Positions 3,447 to 62,501 of a stretch of 64,000 bases of DNA are shown here, piece after piece (position 1 is the first letter of the stretch; every line of letters begins with the position of its first letter). Under the pieces are notes generated by a model, which made no database searches, was not told the origin of the DNA, and worked only from the letters and a program-made list of their open reading frames with translations. The stretch is from a virus. Made by a program: the position numbers and the translations under genes. The DNA lies in the IMG/VR virus record IMGVR_UViG_3300033049_000020, positions 88,465-152,464 of that record. One strand, 5' to 3'.

Positions 3447-3471
3447 GTTCTTTGACATCTTGGTTAAATGG
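3447..3471 (+). promoter_or_regulatory. boxA-like element, second copy
   Basis: It repeats the 2699 element through its last base and again sits directly before a tRNA 5' end (GGTGCTG at 3470). Confidence 0.5.
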
Positions 3472-14887: not shown

Positions 14888-15781
14888 ATGTTTAATATTT
14901 TTAACAAAGAGGTGTTTGACACCAAGAAGATAGTTACTGTGGAAGAAATCCACCAAGAGTTTGATGATGCACAAGAAAAAGTGTTAAAGGAAGCTTCAGA
15001 CATACTGGATGGTATTCCTACCAAAGATTCTAGATTAGAAAGGAAGGCACTTAAATTAGAAATTACTGGTTTCGCTAAGTCGGAATTATTACAGGAATAT
15101 TATACTAAGAATACCGAAATAGAAACTATTGCAAAAGCGGTGGAGGGTAGAAAACGTATGTTGGATAGTATTATGAAATTCATTCAGAAATATCCATACC
15201 AAAAGTTTATCACAGTTGATGAATTGGATAATATTTGTGGCAAATATGGGTTGATATATGCACCCGTCAAACACTACATCAAAGATGTTCCAGAGAAGAA
15301 TCTAGACGAAATAGTTAATAGGAAGGAGCTTCATAGTTCTGAAATAACACCAGTTGTTCATATTGTGTCAAAAATAAGTTTTTGGGACAATACACCACAA
15401 GATTATCAGGATTTTGTGAATAAGCATATCTTGAACCGAGTCTTTCCCGATAAAGAAATGACTGAACGAAACTTTGAACAAGTGATTGAAGAGCGAGGAT
15501 GGAAAGATGGTAAGTCATCCCAGTATTGGTTTAGGAAGGCAACTGTGAAGACTGAAGATAATGCTGGATTACAGGTTGCCGCTCCAGAATCACATTTTGA
15601 TTTGAAAGGATTGAAAAAGACCAAGAAATTTGGTTTCGCTAAAGTGGAATATATCGAAACTAAAGACCCAATTGTTTTTGAATACTGTAAAGACAATATT
15701 GTACGAATAATAAGTAAGTGGGGGACTGACGATGACCAATCATATTTGGACGAATCGTTGATTAATCAAAATTTAAACTAA
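14888..15781 (+). CDS. hypothetical protein, paralogue 2 of a tandem pair
   Basis: The 297-residue tandem paralogue of the gene at 13959 shares the same N- and C-terminal blocks; the middle (residues 150-210) is the divergent part. Function unknown. It ends just before the promoter of the structured RNA region. Confidence 0.82.
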   Translation: MFNIFNKEVFDTKKIVTVEEIHQEFDDAQEKVLKEASDILDGIPTKDSRLERKALKLEITGFAKSELLQEYYTKNTEIETIAKAVEGRKRMLDSIMKFIQKYPYQKFITVDELDNICGKYGLIYAPVKHYIKDVPEKNLDEIVNRKELHSSEITPVVHIVSKISFWDNTPQDYQDFVNKHILNRVFPDKEMTERNFEQVIEERGWKDGKSSQYWFRKATVKTEDNAGLQVAAPESHFDLKGLKKTKKFGFAKVEYIETKDPIVFEYCKDNIVRIISKWGTDDDQSYLDESLINQNLN

Positions 15782-15809: not shown

Positions 15810-15841
15810 TTTGGTAGTGTGGATTATTTTACCTATCTTTG
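15810..15841 (+). promoter_or_regulatory. promoter of the large structured RNA
   Basis: TTTG at 15810-15813 and TATCTTTG at 15834-15841, almost identical to the promoter at 9342. No ORF follows for 1.7 kb, so this drives RNA. Confidence 0.8.
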
Positions 15842-15845
15842 TAGT

Positions 15846-15862
15846 GTTCTTTGAAATGATAG
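15846..15862 (+). promoter_or_regulatory. boxA-like element at the start of the structured RNA
   Basis: GTTCTTTGAAATGATAG resembles the boxA-like GTTCTTTGACAT of the tRNA regions and lies at the expected transcription start. Confidence 0.5.
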
Positions 15863-16863
15863 ATATTGAAGTATTAGGATTTAAAGATTTATTTCTGCAA
15901 TTAAAAGCGAAATAACGGTTCTAAGGTACTGACAGCCGTGAAAGCGGCCTAGGGATAGTAGTGTTAGACAGAAGTTTGATGTTAACGCATTAAATGTTTA
16001 CTGCGGTAGGAAAGGCTCTTCGGAGTTACGAAAACATTACGTGCTCAGTGTTGCATATGTGGGCTGGTTCAAGGAGGTTAGACTCTCTGCCCAAAAAAAT
16101 GCAATTTATAGCGGCCATAAGCGCTCGTGGAGATGTAGTCTGCATCGAATAGAGTAATTAAATCTATATCCGATACTTCAACCTTTAAAAATATTTAGGA
16201 AATGCTTGGCATTAACCTGATGAGGCAATCACGAATGTAGTGGATACATTGCAATAGTAGTGATTGTAACTGGTAAGTGAGAACCAACCATGGAACGGTT
16301 ATCATAGTCTTGCCGCACGTAGAGTGCCAACATGCCTCTAAAGCATTAGATTCATACGATTGAGTGTGGGTCGTGGTTGACGGATGGTGCAAACCCCTCC
16401 CAAGACGCAAAGGAATAGTGAGAAGAGTGGTAGTTCGCCCTACTTTGTCCCCTTAAGTGGGATGCTCTTCTGGCGACATTATTCCGAGAAATTAAAGATA
16501 GATTGGAGAGTGACCTATTAGCGTAGGCGGCCTAGTTGGGGTGGAACATACTACGACACCCAACAACGTGGTTAGAGGTCATTGAAGAGTAAGTGTATGT
16601 GACGATGACACGCTCTCCTAACTGTATTGTTTACCGCAGCATCCGAGATTCAAGGTAGGACTGGGCGTTTGGTTTATCCAACGAAGAAAACTTGGGAGAA
16701 TTGGCGAGTCGATAGGGTAGATATACCTTGAATACGCGAAATAAATTGTTCAAAAGGGGCGAATCGAGAGTCGAGGTATTTGTCGTTCCAAACCGAGAAA
16801 CTCGAACTACTGGCGAGTAGATTCCACTAAAGATGAAAGCTTGTCTAGGGTGGTGAATACGTA

Positions 16864-17027
16864 GATGCCCCACCTGTTAAAAGGTTCCAACTACCGTTGG
16901 AGGATGGTCGTGGTCGGAGTGGTGTTCGATTAGTAGCAATGACTTGAAAAAATCAGAGGTCACTGTCATACGCTGTGAATGGGCGTATCGGTAGTCGGAC
17001 ACCGTAAGTTCTGATGAAGGGGTGCCC
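16864..17027 (+). repeat. structured RNA module, copy 1
   Basis: It begins ATGCCCCACCT and has a hairpin CCAAC-TACC-GTTGG, an A-rich CAGAGG segment, a TACGC/GCGTA hairpin and then CGGTAGT. That last segment complements the first hairpin loop (ACTACCG), a likely pseudoknot. Copy 2 follows directly. Confidence 0.7.
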
Positions 17028-17205
17028 ATGCCCCACCTATATGGTTCGAACTACCGTTCGAACAGAGATGTGTCGACTTCCAACCGACTATATAGCATTC
17101 TCGAAAAAAACAGAGGCAAAGGGGGTACGCTGCAAATGGGCGTAATAGGTAGCTATATCCGAATAAGTATAGTAAGTCGCCAGAGACTTGGGATTCATCT
17201 CTGGC
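17028..17205 (+). repeat. structured RNA module, copy 2
   Basis: It has the same order of elements as copy 1. The first hairpin is CGAAC-TACC-GTTCG, a compensatory C-G to G-C change relative to copy 1, and GGTAG again complements the loop. This covariation argues for selected RNA structure. Confidence 0.7.
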
Positions 17206-17212
17206 GGTAATT

Positions 17213-17297
17213 GGCGCAATAGCTCAGTTGGTAGAGCGAGGTTTAAAAATGCTACTTGTAGCGGCCTTGGTCGGTGGTTCGAATCCATCTTGCGCCA
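17213..17297 (+). tRNA. tRNA-Leu-like (TAA) with 16-nt insertion in the anticodon loop
   Basis: Acceptor GGCGCAA/TTGCGCC, D-arm GCTC/GAGC, T-arm GGTGG/CCATC, A73. The anticodon stem CGAGG/CCTTG encloses TTTAAAA, a perfect 7-nt loop for anticodon TAA, followed by an extra hairpin GCTAC/GTAGC. The variable loop is short, unlike normal tRNA-Leu. The isotype is tentative. Confidence 0.6.
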
Positions 17298-17302
17298 CAT
17301 AT

Positions 17303-17360
17303 GGGGAGGTCAGAGAGGTAGCATTAGGGCTACCCAAGGGTTCGAATCCCTAACTCTCCA
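17303..17360 (+). tRNA. minimal tRNA-like RNA lacking one arm
   Basis: Acceptor GGGGAG/CTCTCC and a T-arm (AGGG-TTCGAAT-CCCT) are present, but only 26 nt lie between them. They form a single hairpin GGTAGC/GCTACC with loop ATTAGG. At 58 nt it lacks a D-arm or an anticodon arm. It could be a functional mini-tRNA or a deletion relic. Confidence 0.45.
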
Positions 17361-17372
17361 CTATTATATAAG

Positions 17373-17570
17373 GTACGGTAGCTCAGATTGCGTTAGAGCA
17401 CTCTTCCTATTAGAGGTGTACAACTTGAAGTAGGAGTATTAAGATGACTGATAAGATAGTATAGTGAGATTCCCTGATGTACAAGGAGGAACGTTGCTAG
17501 AGTGAAATTGAAAGAAGTCTCGATATTAATAACATGAGAGGGGTCGGTGGTTCGAATCCCTCTAGTGCAA
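17373..17570 (+). tRNA. tRNA-Arg-like (CCT) with about 120-nt insertion in the anticodon loop
   Basis: The 5' part has a good D-arm (GCTC/GAGC) and CACTC-TTCCTAT. The 3' part has GAGAG, a T-arm with TTCGAAT and A73. Between them lie about 120 nt without tRNA features, too short for a typical group I intron. The acceptor strands pair only partly, so it may be a decayed or chimeric gene. Confidence 0.4.
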
Positions 17571-17595
17571 CTAAAATATTTTAAACGAATATACT

Positions 17596-18571: not shown

Positions 18572-18718
18572 TCAAAAACATTAAGGATAACAACCTTGTG
18601 GGTTACAAAATATTATCTGCTTTAAGCAAACAGTAAACACGCTGCCCATGGAACCGTTGATAACCTATATTATAGGAAGGAGGGGCAAGGATAATGAAAG
18701 GAATAATACGTCCTTTTT
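18572..18718 (+). ncRNA. structured non-coding segment ending in a terminator
   Basis: No ORF. It contains AACC-TTGTG-GGTT, a TGCCC/GGGGCA long-range stem enclosing CCTATA/TATAGG, and a terminal AAAGGA/TCCTTT hairpin before T residues. It could be the 3' UTR of the upstream gene or an independent small RNA. Confidence 0.45.
18697..18718 (+). terminator. intrinsic terminator
   Basis: AAAGGA and TCCTTT pair across 8 nt, followed by TT. A short stem, moderate support. Confidence 0.55.
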
Positions 18719-18722
18719 AATT

Positions 18723-18955
18723 TACAGTCTAACCAAGACGTTGTTTGTATTAGAGGTGTAGACAGAAGTAACTGTTTTGTTACGACCACTCAACCTTTGG
18801 TGGGTTGACAGATATAATATTGAGAGTGATAGACAGCTCCTGAGTGGATACAGGGCGATTAGGACTAAGGAGAGTCATTAATGACTAGCCTCCTACGGGA
18901 ACACAACTCCGTCTAGCTCTTTTATTGTTCTCATCCAATTTGCAGAGAGCACAAC
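18723..18955 (+). ncRNA. structured non-coding segment
   Basis: No ORF in about 230 nt. Hairpins include TCAACC/GGGTTGA and GGAG-AGTCATTAATGACT-CTCC. It lies between a terminator and the ATATTTATAT motif of the next gene. No family recognised. Confidence 0.4.
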
Positions 18956-18965
18956 ATATTTATAT
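18956..18965 (+). promoter_or_regulatory. ATATTTATAT motif
   Basis: A perfect decamer 4 nt before the ATG at 18970, one of the few copies not serving a homing endonuclease or repressor gene. Confidence 0.5.
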
Positions 18966-18969
18966 ACAC

Positions 18970-19449
18970 ATGAGAGCAATAGAGACACAAGCACCAGACC
19001 CAATAGAGAATAAAGATGGATTCTTAACAGTTTTCTTAGCTGGTTCCATTGAGATGGGAATAGCTGAAGACTGGCAGAAAGAATTAATCGGACTATTATC
19101 AGATAAACCAATTGAATTCTTGAATCCAAGACGAGACGATTGGGATTCATCTTGGATTCAAGAATTCGGTGATAATGAATTTACCGAACAAGTAGAATGG
19201 GAACTATCATCATTAGATGCGGCAGACTTAATCATCTGCTATTTCGACAAAGAAACCAAATCACCGATTACCATGATGGAACTTGGCTTACATGCTAAGT
19301 CTCAGAAGCTAATTGTTTGCTGTCCAGAAGGATTCTGGCGTAAAGGAAACGTTGATGTTATTTGTAATAAATACGGTATAACACAAGTAACAGAATTAGA
19401 AAAATTAGCCAATATATTAAGATTACGAAGTCTTATAAGTACAATTTAA
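18970..19449 (+). CDS. nucleoside 2-deoxyribosyltransferase-like protein
   Basis: The 159-residue protein has VFLAGSIEMG near residue 21, NPRRDDWDSSW near 55, EQVEWEL and ADLIICYF near 75-90, and PITMMELGL near 99. This is the order of the nucleoside 2-deoxyribosyltransferase family (Nuc_deoxyrib_tr_2). Such enzymes exchange bases on deoxyribonucleosides or hydrolyse modified nucleotides. In phages they may serve salvage or nucleotide hypermodification. The ATG at 18970 is chosen because the family begins just before the FLAGSI strand. Confidence 0.82.
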   Translation: MRAIETQAPDPIENKDGFLTVFLAGSIEMGIAEDWQKELIGLLSDKPIEFLNPRRDDWDSSWIQEFGDNEFTEQVEWELSSLDAADLIICYFDKETKSPITMMELGLHAKSQKLIVCCPEGFWRKGNVDVICNKYGITQVTELEKLANILRLRSLISTI

Positions 19450-38682: not shown

Positions 38683-38763
38683 ATGGGTGAATTATATGGT
38701 GTTAGTTTGGAAACAATTAAGAATATAAAATATAAGAAGACGTGGAAACATATAAAGATTTAA
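38683..38763 (+). pseudogene. remnant of a homing-endonuclease C-terminal helix-turn-helix
   Basis: A 26-residue frame (LYGVSLETIKNIKYKKTWKHI) matches the DNA-binding tail typical of HNH endonucleases, with no nuclease domain upstream. It overlaps the first 22 nt of mnmA. It suggests an endonuclease gene was once here and was deleted. Confidence 0.5.
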
Positions 38764-39863
38764 AAGGGAAAAGGGTCTTGTGTGCGATGTCGGGAGGATT
38801 AGATTCCACCATGACAGCGTTACTATTGCACGAGGCTGGATGTGACTGTATAGGTATCACGATGAAAACTTGGGACTATGCATCTTCTGGAGTTGCTGAC
38901 AGTAACTCCAAGACCACAGGTTGTTGCTCGTTGGATGACATCAACGATGCTAGACAACTATGTGTCGATTACGATATCCCTCATAACATCATTGATATAC
39001 GTGAAACTTTCACCGACTCAGTGGTTGATAACTTCATTGATGAATATATGGCTGGTAGGACACCCAATCCTTGTATAGTATGTAATACTCACATTAAGTG
39101 GGGTGCGCTATTAAATTATGCCGACCAATTAGGGTGCGACTATATTGCGACTGGCCATTATGCTCGTATCCGTTACGAAAATGACAGATACGTTATCTCA
39201 AGTGGTATTGATGTAACTAAAGACCAAAGCTATGTGCTATATGGGTTGAGCCAAGAGGTGTTAGCCCGTACTCTAGTTCCTATGGGTGAATACCTTAAAA
39301 GTGATATCAGGAACATGGCTAAAGAGCGTGGCTATGACGCAATTGCTACTAAATCGGAGAGTTACGAGATTTGTTTTGTACCTATTGGACACTTTAGTGA
39401 TTTCTTAAAATTTAAGAGACCAGAGTTATTGCACTTAGATGGTGGGGAAATCAGACTTAAAGATGAGACCGTAATAGGTACGCATCATGGGTATCCTTTC
39501 TACACCGTAGGACAAAGAAGAGGACTTGGGTTATCGACTGGCAATGCGGTATACGTTAATGACATAGACCCTAAGAATAATATTGTCTACGTTGGTGGTG
39601 AAGATGAGTTGAATAAGACTGTGGTATATGTCAAAGATTTTAACTACGTCAAATACCCGTCTATTGAGGATGGATTCGAATGTGTTGTTAAAATACGTTA
39701 TAAGGATAGAGGTTCCCATGCTAGGTTATACAATGCTGAAGATGGGTTAATTAGGGTAGAGTTCCTAAAAGAGGTGAAAGCCCCTACGTTAGGTCAGAGT
39801 GCAGTAGCCGTTGATTATGATGGTGACCTGATTGGTGGTGGTATAATGATTAAGCGTATGTAA
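38742..39863 (+). CDS. mnmA: tRNA-specific 2-thiouridylase MnmA
   Basis: The 373-residue protein is of normal MnmA length. The PP-loop SGGLDSTMTALLLHEAG is near residue 17. The two catalytic Cys are in NPCIVCNTHIKWG (near 106) and ESYEICFVP (near 207), and a GHYARI element and C-terminal beta-barrels are present. MnmA thiolates U34 of tRNA Lys, Glu and Gln, and the window encodes tRNAs with TTT, TTC and TTG anticodons. The start is a GTG inside an endonuclease remnant. Its 3' end overlaps the convergent GIY-YIG gene by 14 bp. Confidence 0.92.
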   Translation: METYKDLKGKRVLCAMSGGLDSTMTALLLHEAGCDCIGITMKTWDYASSGVADSNSKTTGCCSLDDINDARQLCVDYDIPHNIIDIRETFTDSVVDNFIDEYMAGRTPNPCIVCNTHIKWGALLNYADQLGCDYIATGHYARIRYENDRYVISSGIDVTKDQSYVLYGLSQEVLARTLVPMGEYLKSDIRNMAKERGYDAIATKSESYEICFVPIGHFSDFLKFKRPELLHLDGGEIRLKDETVIGTHHGYPFYTVGQRRGLGLSTGNAVYVNDIDPKNNIVYVGGEDELNKTVVYVKDFNYVKYPSIEDGFECVVKIRYKDRGSHARLYNAEDGLIRVEFLKEVKAPTLGQSAVAVDYDGDLIGGGIMIKRM

Positions 39864-53766: not shown

Positions 53767-55350
53767 ATGAGTTTACAAAGACAACTTAGACGAAACCTCA
53801 AGACAGCCTTAGAGAATAGGGATTGGGAGACCATGAACATATTAGCTCCATCATTAGACAAACTATTGGAGAAGCCTGATAATTTAGTACTTCTTGGAGA
53901 TGCTTACAAGTATTCTCATCATAAGTTTTATCTTGACAATACAAGTGTAATTGGTTCGTATATGGAATCAAGAGGGGGTCGATACTCCTCAACAGTATTC
54001 TACGGACTACAATACTTCCTTAAACGATATTTGAGTGGAGTTGCTATCCTTGCAGAAGAGGTAGACGAGGCTTATGAGTACCTAGGAACTAAATTGGGTA
54101 CATTCGGTAGAGACGATGTGTTTGACCGAAGTAAGTTTGACTACATTGTTGAGAAGCATGGTGGTAGACTACCAATCAGAATTAAGGCAGTTCCAGAGGG
54201 AACGTCAGTTAACGTTAGTAACGTTATGTTGTACATCGAGAACACTGACCCTAATTGTGCATGGTTAACCAACTTCTTAGAAACATTGATTCTACAGATT
54301 TGGTATCCAATTACAGTAGCTACTCTTTCAAGAGAGGTGAAGAAAGTAGCTAATCAAGCGTTCCTTGATACTACTGACCATGATAAAGACACTATTGATT
54401 TCTTATTGGACTTCGTATTGAATGACTTTGGTTTCCGTGGAGTGTCCAGTGTTCAATCAGCCGCAATCGGTGGCTCTGCACACTTGGTGAACTTTAGAGG
54501 TTCAGACACTACAGTAGCGTCTCAACTTATTAGAGAGAATTATAATACCGATGTTGTTTACAACCTATCAGTTCCAGCAACTGAGCACTCCATCATGTGT
54601 ATGGAAGGTAAGGAGGGTGAAGCTAAGATGATGAGACGAGTTCTTGAGCAATATCCAACAGGTATTGTAGCTTGTGTGTCAGATACTTATGGTATTATGA
54701 ATGCAATCAGAAACATCTGGGGCGATGAGTTGAAGGATTTGATTTTGTCAAGACCTGCGGAACCAGGAAATCAGTTGGTTATCCGACCTGATTCTGGCCA
54801 CGTAATCAACACATTGATTATGATTTTCGATGAGTTATTTGACATTTTCGGATACACAACCAACAGCAAAGGTTATAAGGTACTTCCATCACAGATTAGA
54901 GTAATCCAAGGTGATGGTGTCAACCCAGACGCAATTGCTGAGATTTATGACATGCTACGAGAGAGAAAAATCTCTGCCGAGAACATTGTATTCGGTATGG
55001 GTGGAAAGCTTCTTCAAGCTAATATTGATAGAGATACGCAGAATTTCGCAACCAAAGCATGCTATGCTGTGATTAATGGTAAAGAACGTAACATCGTTAA
55101 GGAGCCGATTGAAATTAATGAGAACTTCGAGGAAGTTCCATCATTCAAGAAGTCTAAGCAAGGAATGCCTAAATTGGTTAAGAATGATGATGGAACGTTC
55201 CGAACAGTTACTAGCCATATGGTCGAGTTTGACTCAGTTAAAGATGAGTTAGTGACTGTGTTTGAAAATGGTAACATTTTGGTTGATTACACTTTCGAAG
55301 AAATTAGAGAACGAGCAAGTATTCATGAAGAAACTCTGGAGCTAGTTTAA
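53767..55350 (+). CDS. nadV: nicotinamide phosphoribosyltransferase
   Basis: The 527-residue protein is full NAMPT length. Recognisable parts are DAYKYSHHKFY near residue 46, ESRGGRYS, DFGFRGVSS near 220, VPATEHS near 275 (catalytic His region), RPDSGH near 343, QGDGVN and FGMGGKLLQ near 405. It couples nicotinamide to PRPP, giving NMN. The N-terminal 40 residues are a phage-specific helical extension. It is preceded by its own promoter and followed by small coupled genes. Confidence 0.95.
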   Translation: MSLQRQLRRNLKTALENRDWETMNILAPSLDKLLEKPDNLVLLGDAYKYSHHKFYLDNTSVIGSYMESRGGRYSSTVFYGLQYFLKRYLSGVAILAEEVDEAYEYLGTKLGTFGRDDVFDRSKFDYIVEKHGGRLPIRIKAVPEGTSVNVSNVMLYIENTDPNCAWLTNFLETLILQIWYPITVATLSREVKKVANQAFLDTTDHDKDTIDFLLDFVLNDFGFRGVSSVQSAAIGGSAHLVNFRGSDTTVASQLIRENYNTDVVYNLSVPATEHSIMCMEGKEGEAKMMRRVLEQYPTGIVACVSDTYGIMNAIRNIWGDELKDLILSRPAEPGNQLVIRPDSGHVINTLIMIFDELFDIFGYTTNSKGYKVLPSQIRVIQGDGVNPDAIAEIYDMLRERKISAENIVFGMGGKLLQANIDRDTQNFATKACYAVINGKERNIVKEPIEINENFEEVPSFKKSKQGMPKLVKNDDGTFRTVTSHMVEFDSVKDELVTVFENGNILVDYTFEEIRERASIHEETLELV

Positions 55351-60920: not shown

Positions 60921-62501
60921 ATGAAATTTAAGGAACTAACGGATGAACATATCCAAGCTATACGTAATATATTTACAGATAAAAGCGTCTCTTGGGATGA
61001 GAGAATCGACCAAATTAAAGCTATTACCGATACGTCCGAAAGAACGGTTAGGAAATGGTTAATCAAATTAGGTATTTCCAAGACCAAAGAGGAAGTATCA
61101 CCTCAATACGAAACAGCTAAAAAGAAGAAAGCTGATAAGACCAAAAATGTTCTTTGTATAACATGGGGTCAATGTAATACTGATGTCCATGAACAATTAT
61201 TTACCAATATAGAATCATATGCTAAAGAGCGTAATGGTGCTATTCACGTAATCGCAGGTCGATATAAAAATCCAACTAGCTTGGAGGGTATGCACACCAT
61301 CCAACAAGGTGAGACTTGGCATTCTCGTTTAGTACCATATTTGGATGCTAATCGACATGACATTCATAAATACTTATCGATACTATCTGATATTAAAACC
61401 CAACCAACTGCTATTAATCCAATGTCGGGTATGGCAGGTGTAAGTGGTGTTAATTCGTGTATTTTCGGGTCACCTAAAGTACAAATGGAAATGATACCAG
61501 TACTTGAAGGTAATAGACCTAAAATGATGATGACTACTGGTGCCTGTACGGTTAAGAACTATACAGACAGTAAAGCTGGTAAAAAAGGTGAATTCCATCA
61601 TACGTTAGGTTTTATAGTAGTAGAAATTGAAGATAAGGATACGTTCCACCTTCGTCATGTAACTGCTGATGATAATGGTAATTTTATAGACCTATTTTAT
61701 GAGGTTAAAGACGGTGTGGTTTCGACCATTGAAGATTGTGATGCAATTGTATTGGGTGACCTTCACGTTGGCCACCACGATGAAGAGGTTCTTGTTAAGA
61801 CGTCTGACCTTATGAATAGACTTAAGCCGAAGCACACCATATTGCACGATGTGTTTGATGGTAGGTCAATAAGTCACCACGAAGCTAAAGACCCGTTCAT
61901 TCAATACGCTAAGGAATTCCATGGTCAAAATGATTTGGGAGAAGAGATTGAGGAGATGATGGGAGTTCTGAGTATGTTCAAACATAGACCAAATGTGGTT
62001 ATTGTTAGAAGTAATCACGATGACTTCTTAGATAGATGGTTGAAGCTGAATGATTGGCGTAAACAATCCACACCAAAGAACAATAAGCTGTATATGGATT
62101 TTTCTCAAAGATTGATGAACCAATATGAGAATACTCCAGACCAAGTATTAGGTGTTATTCCCGAATTGATTACTGATAGATTCCCTAAGTATAAAACATT
62201 AGGCAGGGGCGACTCTTATAAGGTAAATGGATGGGAGTTAGGTCATCACGGAGATATGGGTGCTAACGGCTCCAGAGGTAGCTTATTGAGCTTCAGGAGA
62301 CTTAATACTAAAGTAATTGTTGGTCACTACCATAGCCCACAGAGAAAAGACGGTGCTTTGGCAGTCGGAACATCAACTCACTTACGAGTAGGCTACAATA
62401 AAGGAGCTTCAGGTTGGTTGCAAAGTCACGTAATTATTCATAAAAATGGTAAGGCGCAGCATATCAATTTTATAAATGGTAAATTCACCATTATAAAATA
62501 A
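60921..62501 (+). CDS. T5 A1-like metallophosphoesterase
   Basis: The 526-residue protein has an N-terminal helix-turn-helix (TSERTVRKWLIKLGISKTKE, residues 34-54). A middle region has GWxQ-type ITWGQCNTDVHEQLF and FGSPKVQMEMIP. The C-terminal metallophosphoesterase has LGDLHVGHHD near 277, HDVFDGRSISHH near 313, RSNHDDFLD near 358, GHHGDMGANG and IVGHYHSP near 465. This resembles the T5 A1 protein, needed for host DNA degradation and completion of DNA entry. That function is assigned by similarity. Confidence 0.75.
   Translation: MKFKELTDEHIQAIRNIFTDKSVSWDERIDQIKAITDTSERTVRKWLIKLGISKTKEEVSPQYETAKKKKADKTKNVLCITWGQCNTDVHEQLFTNIESYAKERNGAIHVIAGRYKNPTSLEGMHTIQQGETWHSRLVPYLDANRHDIHKYLSILSDIKTQPTAINPMSGMAGVSGVNSCIFGSPKVQMEMIPVLEGNRPKMMMTTGACTVKNYTDSKAGKKGEFHHTLGFIVVEIEDKDTFHLRHVTADDNGNFIDLFYEVKDGVVSTIEDCDAIVLGDLHVGHHDEEVLVKTSDLMNRLKPKHTILHDVFDGRSISHHEAKDPFIQYAKEFHGQNDLGEEIEEMMGVLSMFKHRPNVVIVRSNHDDFLDRWLKLNDWRKQSTPKNNKLYMDFSQRLMNQYENTPDQVLGVIPELITDRFPKYKTLGRGDSYKVNGWELGHHGDMGANGSRGSLLSFRRLNTKVIVGHYHSPQRKDGALAVGTSTHLRVGYNKGASGWLQSHVIIHKNGKAQHINFINGKFTIIK

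What the first reader, a model, noticed from the sequence alone, without database searches (positions are those of the whole stretch)
15846..17212. 1.4-kb multi-domain structured RNA with its own promoter next to tRNAs
An ORF-free, GC-richer stretch begins 5 nt after a strong promoter with a boxA-like sequence. It folds by eye into several closed domains: TTGAAGTATTAGGAT with its complement 300 nt later, GGAATA/TATTCC, and TGACCT/AGGTCA. It runs into tRNA genes. GOLLD and ROOL RNAs have the same kind of context, but I see no decisive sequence match, so this may be a new class.
Basis: partly seen in the sequence, partly recalled or inferred. Interest (0 to 1): 0.92.

Follow-up and report, generated by a model that had tools for sequence, protein, structure and literature searches.

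The report
New structured RNA in a phage
A phage of Bacteroidota-type bacteria carries, at the head of a group of tRNA genes, a long folded RNA that belongs to no known RNA family; its first 315 letters recur, with the fold preserved, in one other phage, so it looks like a new kind of large phage RNA whose job is still to be tested.

Summary
Window 15846-17212 is non-coding and GC-rich (about 46% against 34% around it). It starts 5 nt after a Bacteroidota-type promoter, has a boxA-like leader like those near this phage's tRNAs, and ends at a tRNA gene. The first ~315 nt (15866-16181) are a real structured RNA: a homologue (66% identity) lies among tRNAs in one other phage record, G029, and the common fold has 13 doubly compensated pairs (z -5.5; 0 of 200 shuffled alignments as good). 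The remaining ~1 kb has no homologue I could find; it holds a duplicated ~130-nt module with modest structural support.

No Rfam family matches at E up to 10, so GOLLD, ROOL, HEARO and OLE are not supported. G029 carries this domain and, separately, a divergent GOLLD, so the domain is not GOLLD.

New here: the 5' domain is closed by a stem plus UUCWGCAA loop that relatives use to close Y-RNA-like, circularly permuted tRNA modules. I read the locus as a new family of large structured phage RNA, working like GOLLD or ROOL, with a shared docking stem. That it is one 1.37-kb molecule, and what it does, are inferences.

The parts
15810..15841 (+). Bacteroidota-type promoter TTTG-N20-TATCTTTG
   Evidence: 18 such sites in the window against 0.48 expected
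15846..15857 (+). boxA-like leader GTTCTTTGAAAT
   Evidence: the same motif (GTTCTTTGACAT) lies near tRNA genes of this phage and, as GTTCTTTAAAATA, in the leader of G029's GOLLD-like RNA
15866..16181 (+). conserved 5' domain, closed by outer helix 15866-15880 / 16168-16181
   Evidence: homologue in G029, 66% identity, E 5e-28; consensus fold with 13 doubly compensated pairs, z -5.5, 0 of 200 shuffles; outer helix probability 0.83-0.98
15885..15891 (+). A arm (AGATTTA) of the A/B docking stem; the conserved loop motif TTTCTGCAATTAAAA follows
   Evidence: covarying arms across related phages; motif absent from the reversed control
16159..16165 (+). B arm (TAAATCT) of the A/B docking stem
16041..16116 (+). 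best-conserved core of the 5' domain (model R1)
   Evidence: 80% identical to G029 without gaps; the model finds only G000 and G029 among 37 records
15912..15928 (+). ATAACGGTTCTAAGGTA, 16 of 17 letters as in E. coli 23S rRNA around 1914-1932
   Evidence: reached by 6 of 300 random sequences, so only suggestive
16412..16485 (+). stable hairpin domain GGAATA...TATTCC
   Evidence: pair probability 0.99
16878..17009 (+). module M1 of the duplicated structure
17038..17172 (+). module M2 of the duplicated structure
17177..17207 (+). strong 3'-terminal hairpin
17213..17298 (+). tRNA gene with an enlarged anticodon arm; its 5' end would set the 3' end of the RNA if RNase P cuts here (inference)
   Evidence: ARAGORN and Rfam, 53.4 bits

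Best explanation
The locus encodes a non-coding, highly folded stable RNA of a Bacteroidota-type phage, the first described of a new family. Transcription starts near 15847 from a Bacteroidota-type promoter. A boxA-like leader would keep polymerase going through long untranslated RNA, as in rRNA and tRNA operons. RNase P at the tRNA start (17213) would free the 3' end. The first ~315 nt form an autonomous conserved domain, closed by a stem (A/B stem plus UUCWGCAA / A-rich internal loop) that the phage family also uses to close Y-RNA-like permuted-tRNA modules. Most likely it is a structural or scaffolding RNA made in quantity during infection, like GOLLD or ROOL, and its stem binds a partner shared with the Y-RNA-like modules. 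Shown here: non-coding, promoter, conserved covarying 5' domain, the same covarying stem in other phages, no known family. Inferred: one continuous 1.37-kb molecule, antitermination, RNase P release, abundance, partner and function.
For: Promoter, boxA-like leader shared with tRNA leaders and with a GOLLD-like RNA, GC and fold energy, homologue and covariation, frame-breaking indels of 1, 2 and 22 nt, A/B stem covariation in related phages, duplicated module in the 3' part, tRNA directly downstream. GOLLD and ROOL lie near phage tRNA islands, and GOLLD rises during lysis (PMC12286853).
Against: Only two members of the 5' domain are known, so covariation rests on one comparison. The 3' kilobase has no homologue. 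In G029 the 5' domain stands alone. No expression data. The function is by analogy of context and size only.
Confidence: 0.5

Rival explanations
1. Composite locus: the 5' domain is a separate RNA of about 320 nt, and the following kilobase is one or more other structured RNAs, or decayed tRNA-array material, co-transcribed with it and cut apart. There is no single 1.37-kb molecule.
For: In G029 the domain is followed at once by a permuted tRNA-like unit and odd tRNAs. Homology to the window stops near 16206. The window array holds odd tRNAs right behind it.
Against: One promoter, no clear internal start in the consensus scan, uniform GC rise up to the tRNA.
Confidence: 0.3
2. A very divergent GOLLD or ROOL RNA that Rfam models no longer recognise.
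For: Same kind of place; relatives G009, G012 and G029 do carry GOLLD-like RNAs that score below Rfam's cut-off.
Against: No match at E up to 10 in the window or the whole record. G029 has the 5' domain and a GOLLD-like RNA at separate places, so the 5' domain is not GOLLD; for the 3' kilobase it is only unlikely.
Confidence: 0.08
3. A catalytic or self-processing RNA: the A/B stem brings the ends of the enclosed domain together and they are joined, giving a circular or permuted product.
For: In relatives the same stem encloses circularly permuted tRNAs whose halves would join into a regular anticodon arm, e.g. CG|AGG CTGTTAA CCTCG (read; acceptor pairing).
Against: Y RNAs have the same permuted topology without being spliced (PMC11472068), and YrlA recognises the modules. 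No known ribozyme core was found by Rfam.
Confidence: 0.05
4. Not functional: a decayed coding or foreign stretch with chance folding.
For: The 3' kilobase has no homologue, and its repeat module has only modest structural support.
Against: Covariation of the 5' domain, promoter, and frame-breaking indels in otherwise conserved sequence.
Confidence: 0.05

Closest known systems
GOLLD RNA (Rfam RF02032)
   Same: Large GC-rich folded RNA in a phage tRNA array, with a boxA-like leader as in G029's GOLLD-like RNA.
   Different: No model match in G000; G029 carries both at different places.
ROOL RNA (Rfam RF03087)
   Same: Large phage RNA near tRNA islands (PMC12286853).
   Different: No match in the window or in 24 related records (the latter had no positive control).
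YrlA bacterial Y RNA (Rfam RF02553)
   Same: Relatives' modules closed by the same A/B stem have the permuted-tRNA topology of Y RNA.
   Different: The window's domain holds no tRNA-like module. The outer stem differs from the YrlA consensus (read by eye). No Ro60 gene in G000.
OLE and HEARO RNAs
   Same: Size class and folded non-coding RNA (general knowledge).
   Different: No Rfam match at E up to 10.

Membership tests
GOLLD | Match to the conserved 3' region (RF02032) | tested here: not met
   No match at E up to 10; the same search does find GOLLD-like RNAs in G009, G012 and G029
GOLLD | Location in a phage tRNA array | tested here: met
GOLLD | Forms an RNA-only multimeric cage, made late in infection | not testable with these tools
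   Needs expression and structure data; reported for GOLLD in PMC12286853
ROOL | Match to RF03087 | tested here: not met
   the controls did not ring either
HEARO and OLE | Match to the Rfam models | tested here: not met
YrlA / bacterial Y RNA | Circularly permuted tRNA module | tested here: not met
   None in the window; present in relatives
YrlA / bacterial Y RNA | Ro60 (TROVE) partner encoded nearby | tested here: not met
   No PF05731 match in G000; the record may be incomplete, and a host Ro60 was not tested
23S rRNA fragment | Match to an rRNA covariance model or extended identity | tested here: not met
   Only 17 nt alike; no rRNA model match

The most novel reading that the evidence does not exclude
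These phages use one modular RNA stem (the A/B stem with its UUCAGCAA loop) as a common socket that carries nothing, a permuted tRNA or, in the window, a large new RNA domain. The stem either binds one partner or joins the enclosed ends. In the second case the permuted tRNAs, a gene form that my literature search found reported only in algae and archaea, would be real tRNA genes in phages.
Probability: 0.12. Interest if true: 0.92.

Novelty: new variant of a known kind. Interest (0 to 1): 0.62.

Why it matters
Large phage RNAs such as GOLLD and ROOL form RNA-only cages, yet their function is unknown (PMC12286853). A further, unrelated RNA in the same kind of place would suggest that phages have evolved such molecules repeatedly. 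It also comes with a handle: a short covarying stem shared with tRNA-mimicking modules in related phages, which can be used to fish for a common partner.

Tried and rejected
Rfam at gathering and at E up to 10: no family. IMG/VR patterns from the 3' repeats: hits at the level expected by chance. Three IMG/VR patterns from the 5' domain: G029 is the only true homologue; other hits were chance, apart from a short match in G002-type phages inside a different element. Annotated phages, plasmids and GTDB genomes: no homologue; the two GTDB hits of motif A are chance. Neighbour protein 14888-15781: no relative in IMG/VR and no Pfam or PHROG family. Cultured relative Cellulophaga phage phi4:1: a tRNA array, but no 5' domain and no A/B stem. 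Long rRNA-derived RNA: rejected, only 17 nt alike. My first idea, that relatives hold spliced permuted tRNA genes, was demoted after the YrlA match. A third copy of the repeat module: no support (z -0.8).

Full report
WHERE IT IS. The window is bases 88465-152464 of a 152,464-base IMG/VR virus record, G000. Promoters of the Bacteroidota type TTTG-N20-TAnnTTTG occur 18 times against 0.48 expected. The A1-like DNA transfer protein (60921-62501) has its nearest named relatives in Maribacter, Cellulophaga and Flavobacterium phages. The record has 52 tRNA matches. The host phylum is thus inferred, not known.

THE OBSERVATION. Between the ORF ending at 15781 and the tRNA at 17213 lies a stretch without a convincing ORF. 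GC rises to 0.44-0.47 from about 0.34. A promoter ends at 15841, five bases before the boxA-like GTTCTTTGAAAT at 15846. GTTCTTTGACAT stands upstream of tRNA genes at 2699 and 21373 and beside the array at 3447; the motif count alone is weak evidence (7 of 100 shuffles reach it). The GOLLD-like RNA of a related phage, G029, also has GTTCTTTAAAATA in its leader. The fold energy of the whole stretch is 3.0 standard deviations below dinucleotide shuffles.

THE 5' DOMAIN IS A REAL RNA. A BLAST over 36 related phage records found a homologue in G029 (IMGVR_UViG_3300038696_000205), E 5e-28, aligned over 349 positions at 66% identity. It lies among tRNA genes in a similar order to the window: Phe, Glu and Asp tRNAs upstream, Pro, Gln and Tyr downstream, behind its own promoter-like TATATTTG (read by eye). 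The two-sequence consensus fold has 57 pairs, of which 13 changed on both sides and are kept. Its energy was not reached by any of 200 column-shuffled alignments (z -5.5). Gaps of 1, 2 and 22 bases argue against a reading frame. A covariance model of the best-conserved 76 nt finds only these two among 37 records. Patterns in IMG/VR and in 84,980 prokaryote genomes add no true homologue.

THE 3' KILOBASE. No homologue was found in the records searched. It has a duplicated module, M1 16878-17009 and M2 17038-17172. One hairpin changed from TCCAAC/GTTGGA to TCGAAC/GTTCGA, keeping its pairs, and the hairpin TACGC/GCGTA is unchanged. Structural support is modest (z -2.2, 6 of 200 shuffles as good). 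A strong hairpin at about 17177-17207 sits just before the tRNA. I infer that RNase P at 17213 would release the 3' end; this is not shown.

NOT A KNOWN FAMILY. Rfam 15 gives nothing in this stretch except the tRNA at its end; the other entries up to E 10 are far below their cut-offs. GOLLD-like RNAs exist in G009 and G012 (95.6 bits) and in G029 (57.6 bits), all below Rfam's cut-off of 150 but with E-values of 1e-15 or better; none is in G000. As G029 has the 5' domain and a GOLLD-like RNA at separate places, the 5' domain is not GOLLD. ROOL was not found, though that search had no positive control.

AN UNEXPECTED LINK. The domain is closed by a stem (AGATTTA 15885-15891 / TAAATCT 16159-16165) followed on the 5' side by TTTCTGCAATTAAAA. 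The same motif, AAAGATTN0-3TTTCWGCAA, occurs once or twice in 9 of 37 records and never in the reversed control. Its arms covary: AAGATTA/TAATCTT, AAGATTG/CAATCTT, AGAATGG/CCATTCT, AGATTCA/TGAATCT. In relatives the stem encloses a circularly permuted tRNA: anticodon loop, T arm, 3' acceptor strand, linker of 4-14 nt, 5' acceptor strand, D arm. A strict descriptor (7 of 7 acceptor pairs) finds 10 units in the loci scanned and none in the window. Of 12 distinct units behind motif A, ten have 7 of 7 and two have 6 of 7 acceptor pairs, over seven different acceptor sequences (a thirteenth row there is not of this kind). Rfam's YrlA model, a bacterial Y RNA, recognises them below its cut-off (best 45.9 bits, cut-off 69); weak YrlA matches also ring in control genomes. 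Y RNAs are known circularly permuted tRNA mimics (PMC11472068). The phage outer stem differs from the YrlA consensus, and Ro60 genes are found only in two other relatives. So in this phage family one stem closes different contents, and the window's domain is one of them. A shared binding partner is the simplest reading; it is an inference.

HOW IT MOST LIKELY WORKS. A structural RNA made in quantity at the head of a tRNA operon, read through by antitermination, freed by tRNA processing, and docked through the A/B stem. The analogy to GOLLD and ROOL rests on context and size. The main rival is that the 5' domain and the 3' kilobase are separate RNAs, because in G029 the domain stands alone.

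VERDICT. The structured 5' RNA is established computationally, from one pair of homologues; the 1.37-kb unit and its function are not. I rate it a new family within the known kind of large phage RNAs.

Noticed in passing
L144, L145, L149, L152, L168, L169, L193, L195, L196, L203 (related phages): Circularly permuted tRNA-like units, some in tandem, closed by the covarying A/B stem. The acceptor stem varies strongly between near-identical neighbours (L193 against L197) yet stays paired, and the enclosed anticodon loops look intact (Asn, Thr, Gln, Asp).
   Followed up: partly
L139:5172-4773 (G029), L156:1501-1932 (G009), L157 (G012): Divergent GOLLD RNAs in phages of this group, well below Rfam's cut-off but with clear E-values (1e-15 to 1e-26).
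   Followed up: partly
window 15912-15928: ATAACGGTTCTAAGGTA in the 5' domain is 16 of 17 letters like a conserved 23S rRNA segment; G029 has the same place as AATGGTCCTAAGGTAG. 6 of 300 random sequences do as well.
   Followed up: yes
window 17213-17571: Odd tRNA genes behind the RNA: one with an enlarged anticodon arm, one without regular D and anticodon arms (17303-17362), and one with a long insertion or recombined 3' half (17371-17571).
   Followed up: no
window 18572-19060: About 350 nt without a gene, then a long hairpin that overlaps the start of a nucleoside deoxyribosyltransferase-like gene (fold z -7.7 at 19001); possible leader regulation.
   Followed up: no
L139:6830-6610 (G029): A further non-coding stretch with an A-like motif (AAAGATAATTTCTGC) and a long closing helix.
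   Followed up: no
L185:677 and L139 about 4620-4560: Mini forms of the A/B element (stem and loop motif without an inserted domain), about 50-60 nt.
   Followed up: partly
window 38742-39863 and 53767-55350: QueC-like queuosine biosynthesis gene and nicotinamide phosphoribosyltransferase gene in the same phage.
   Followed up: no
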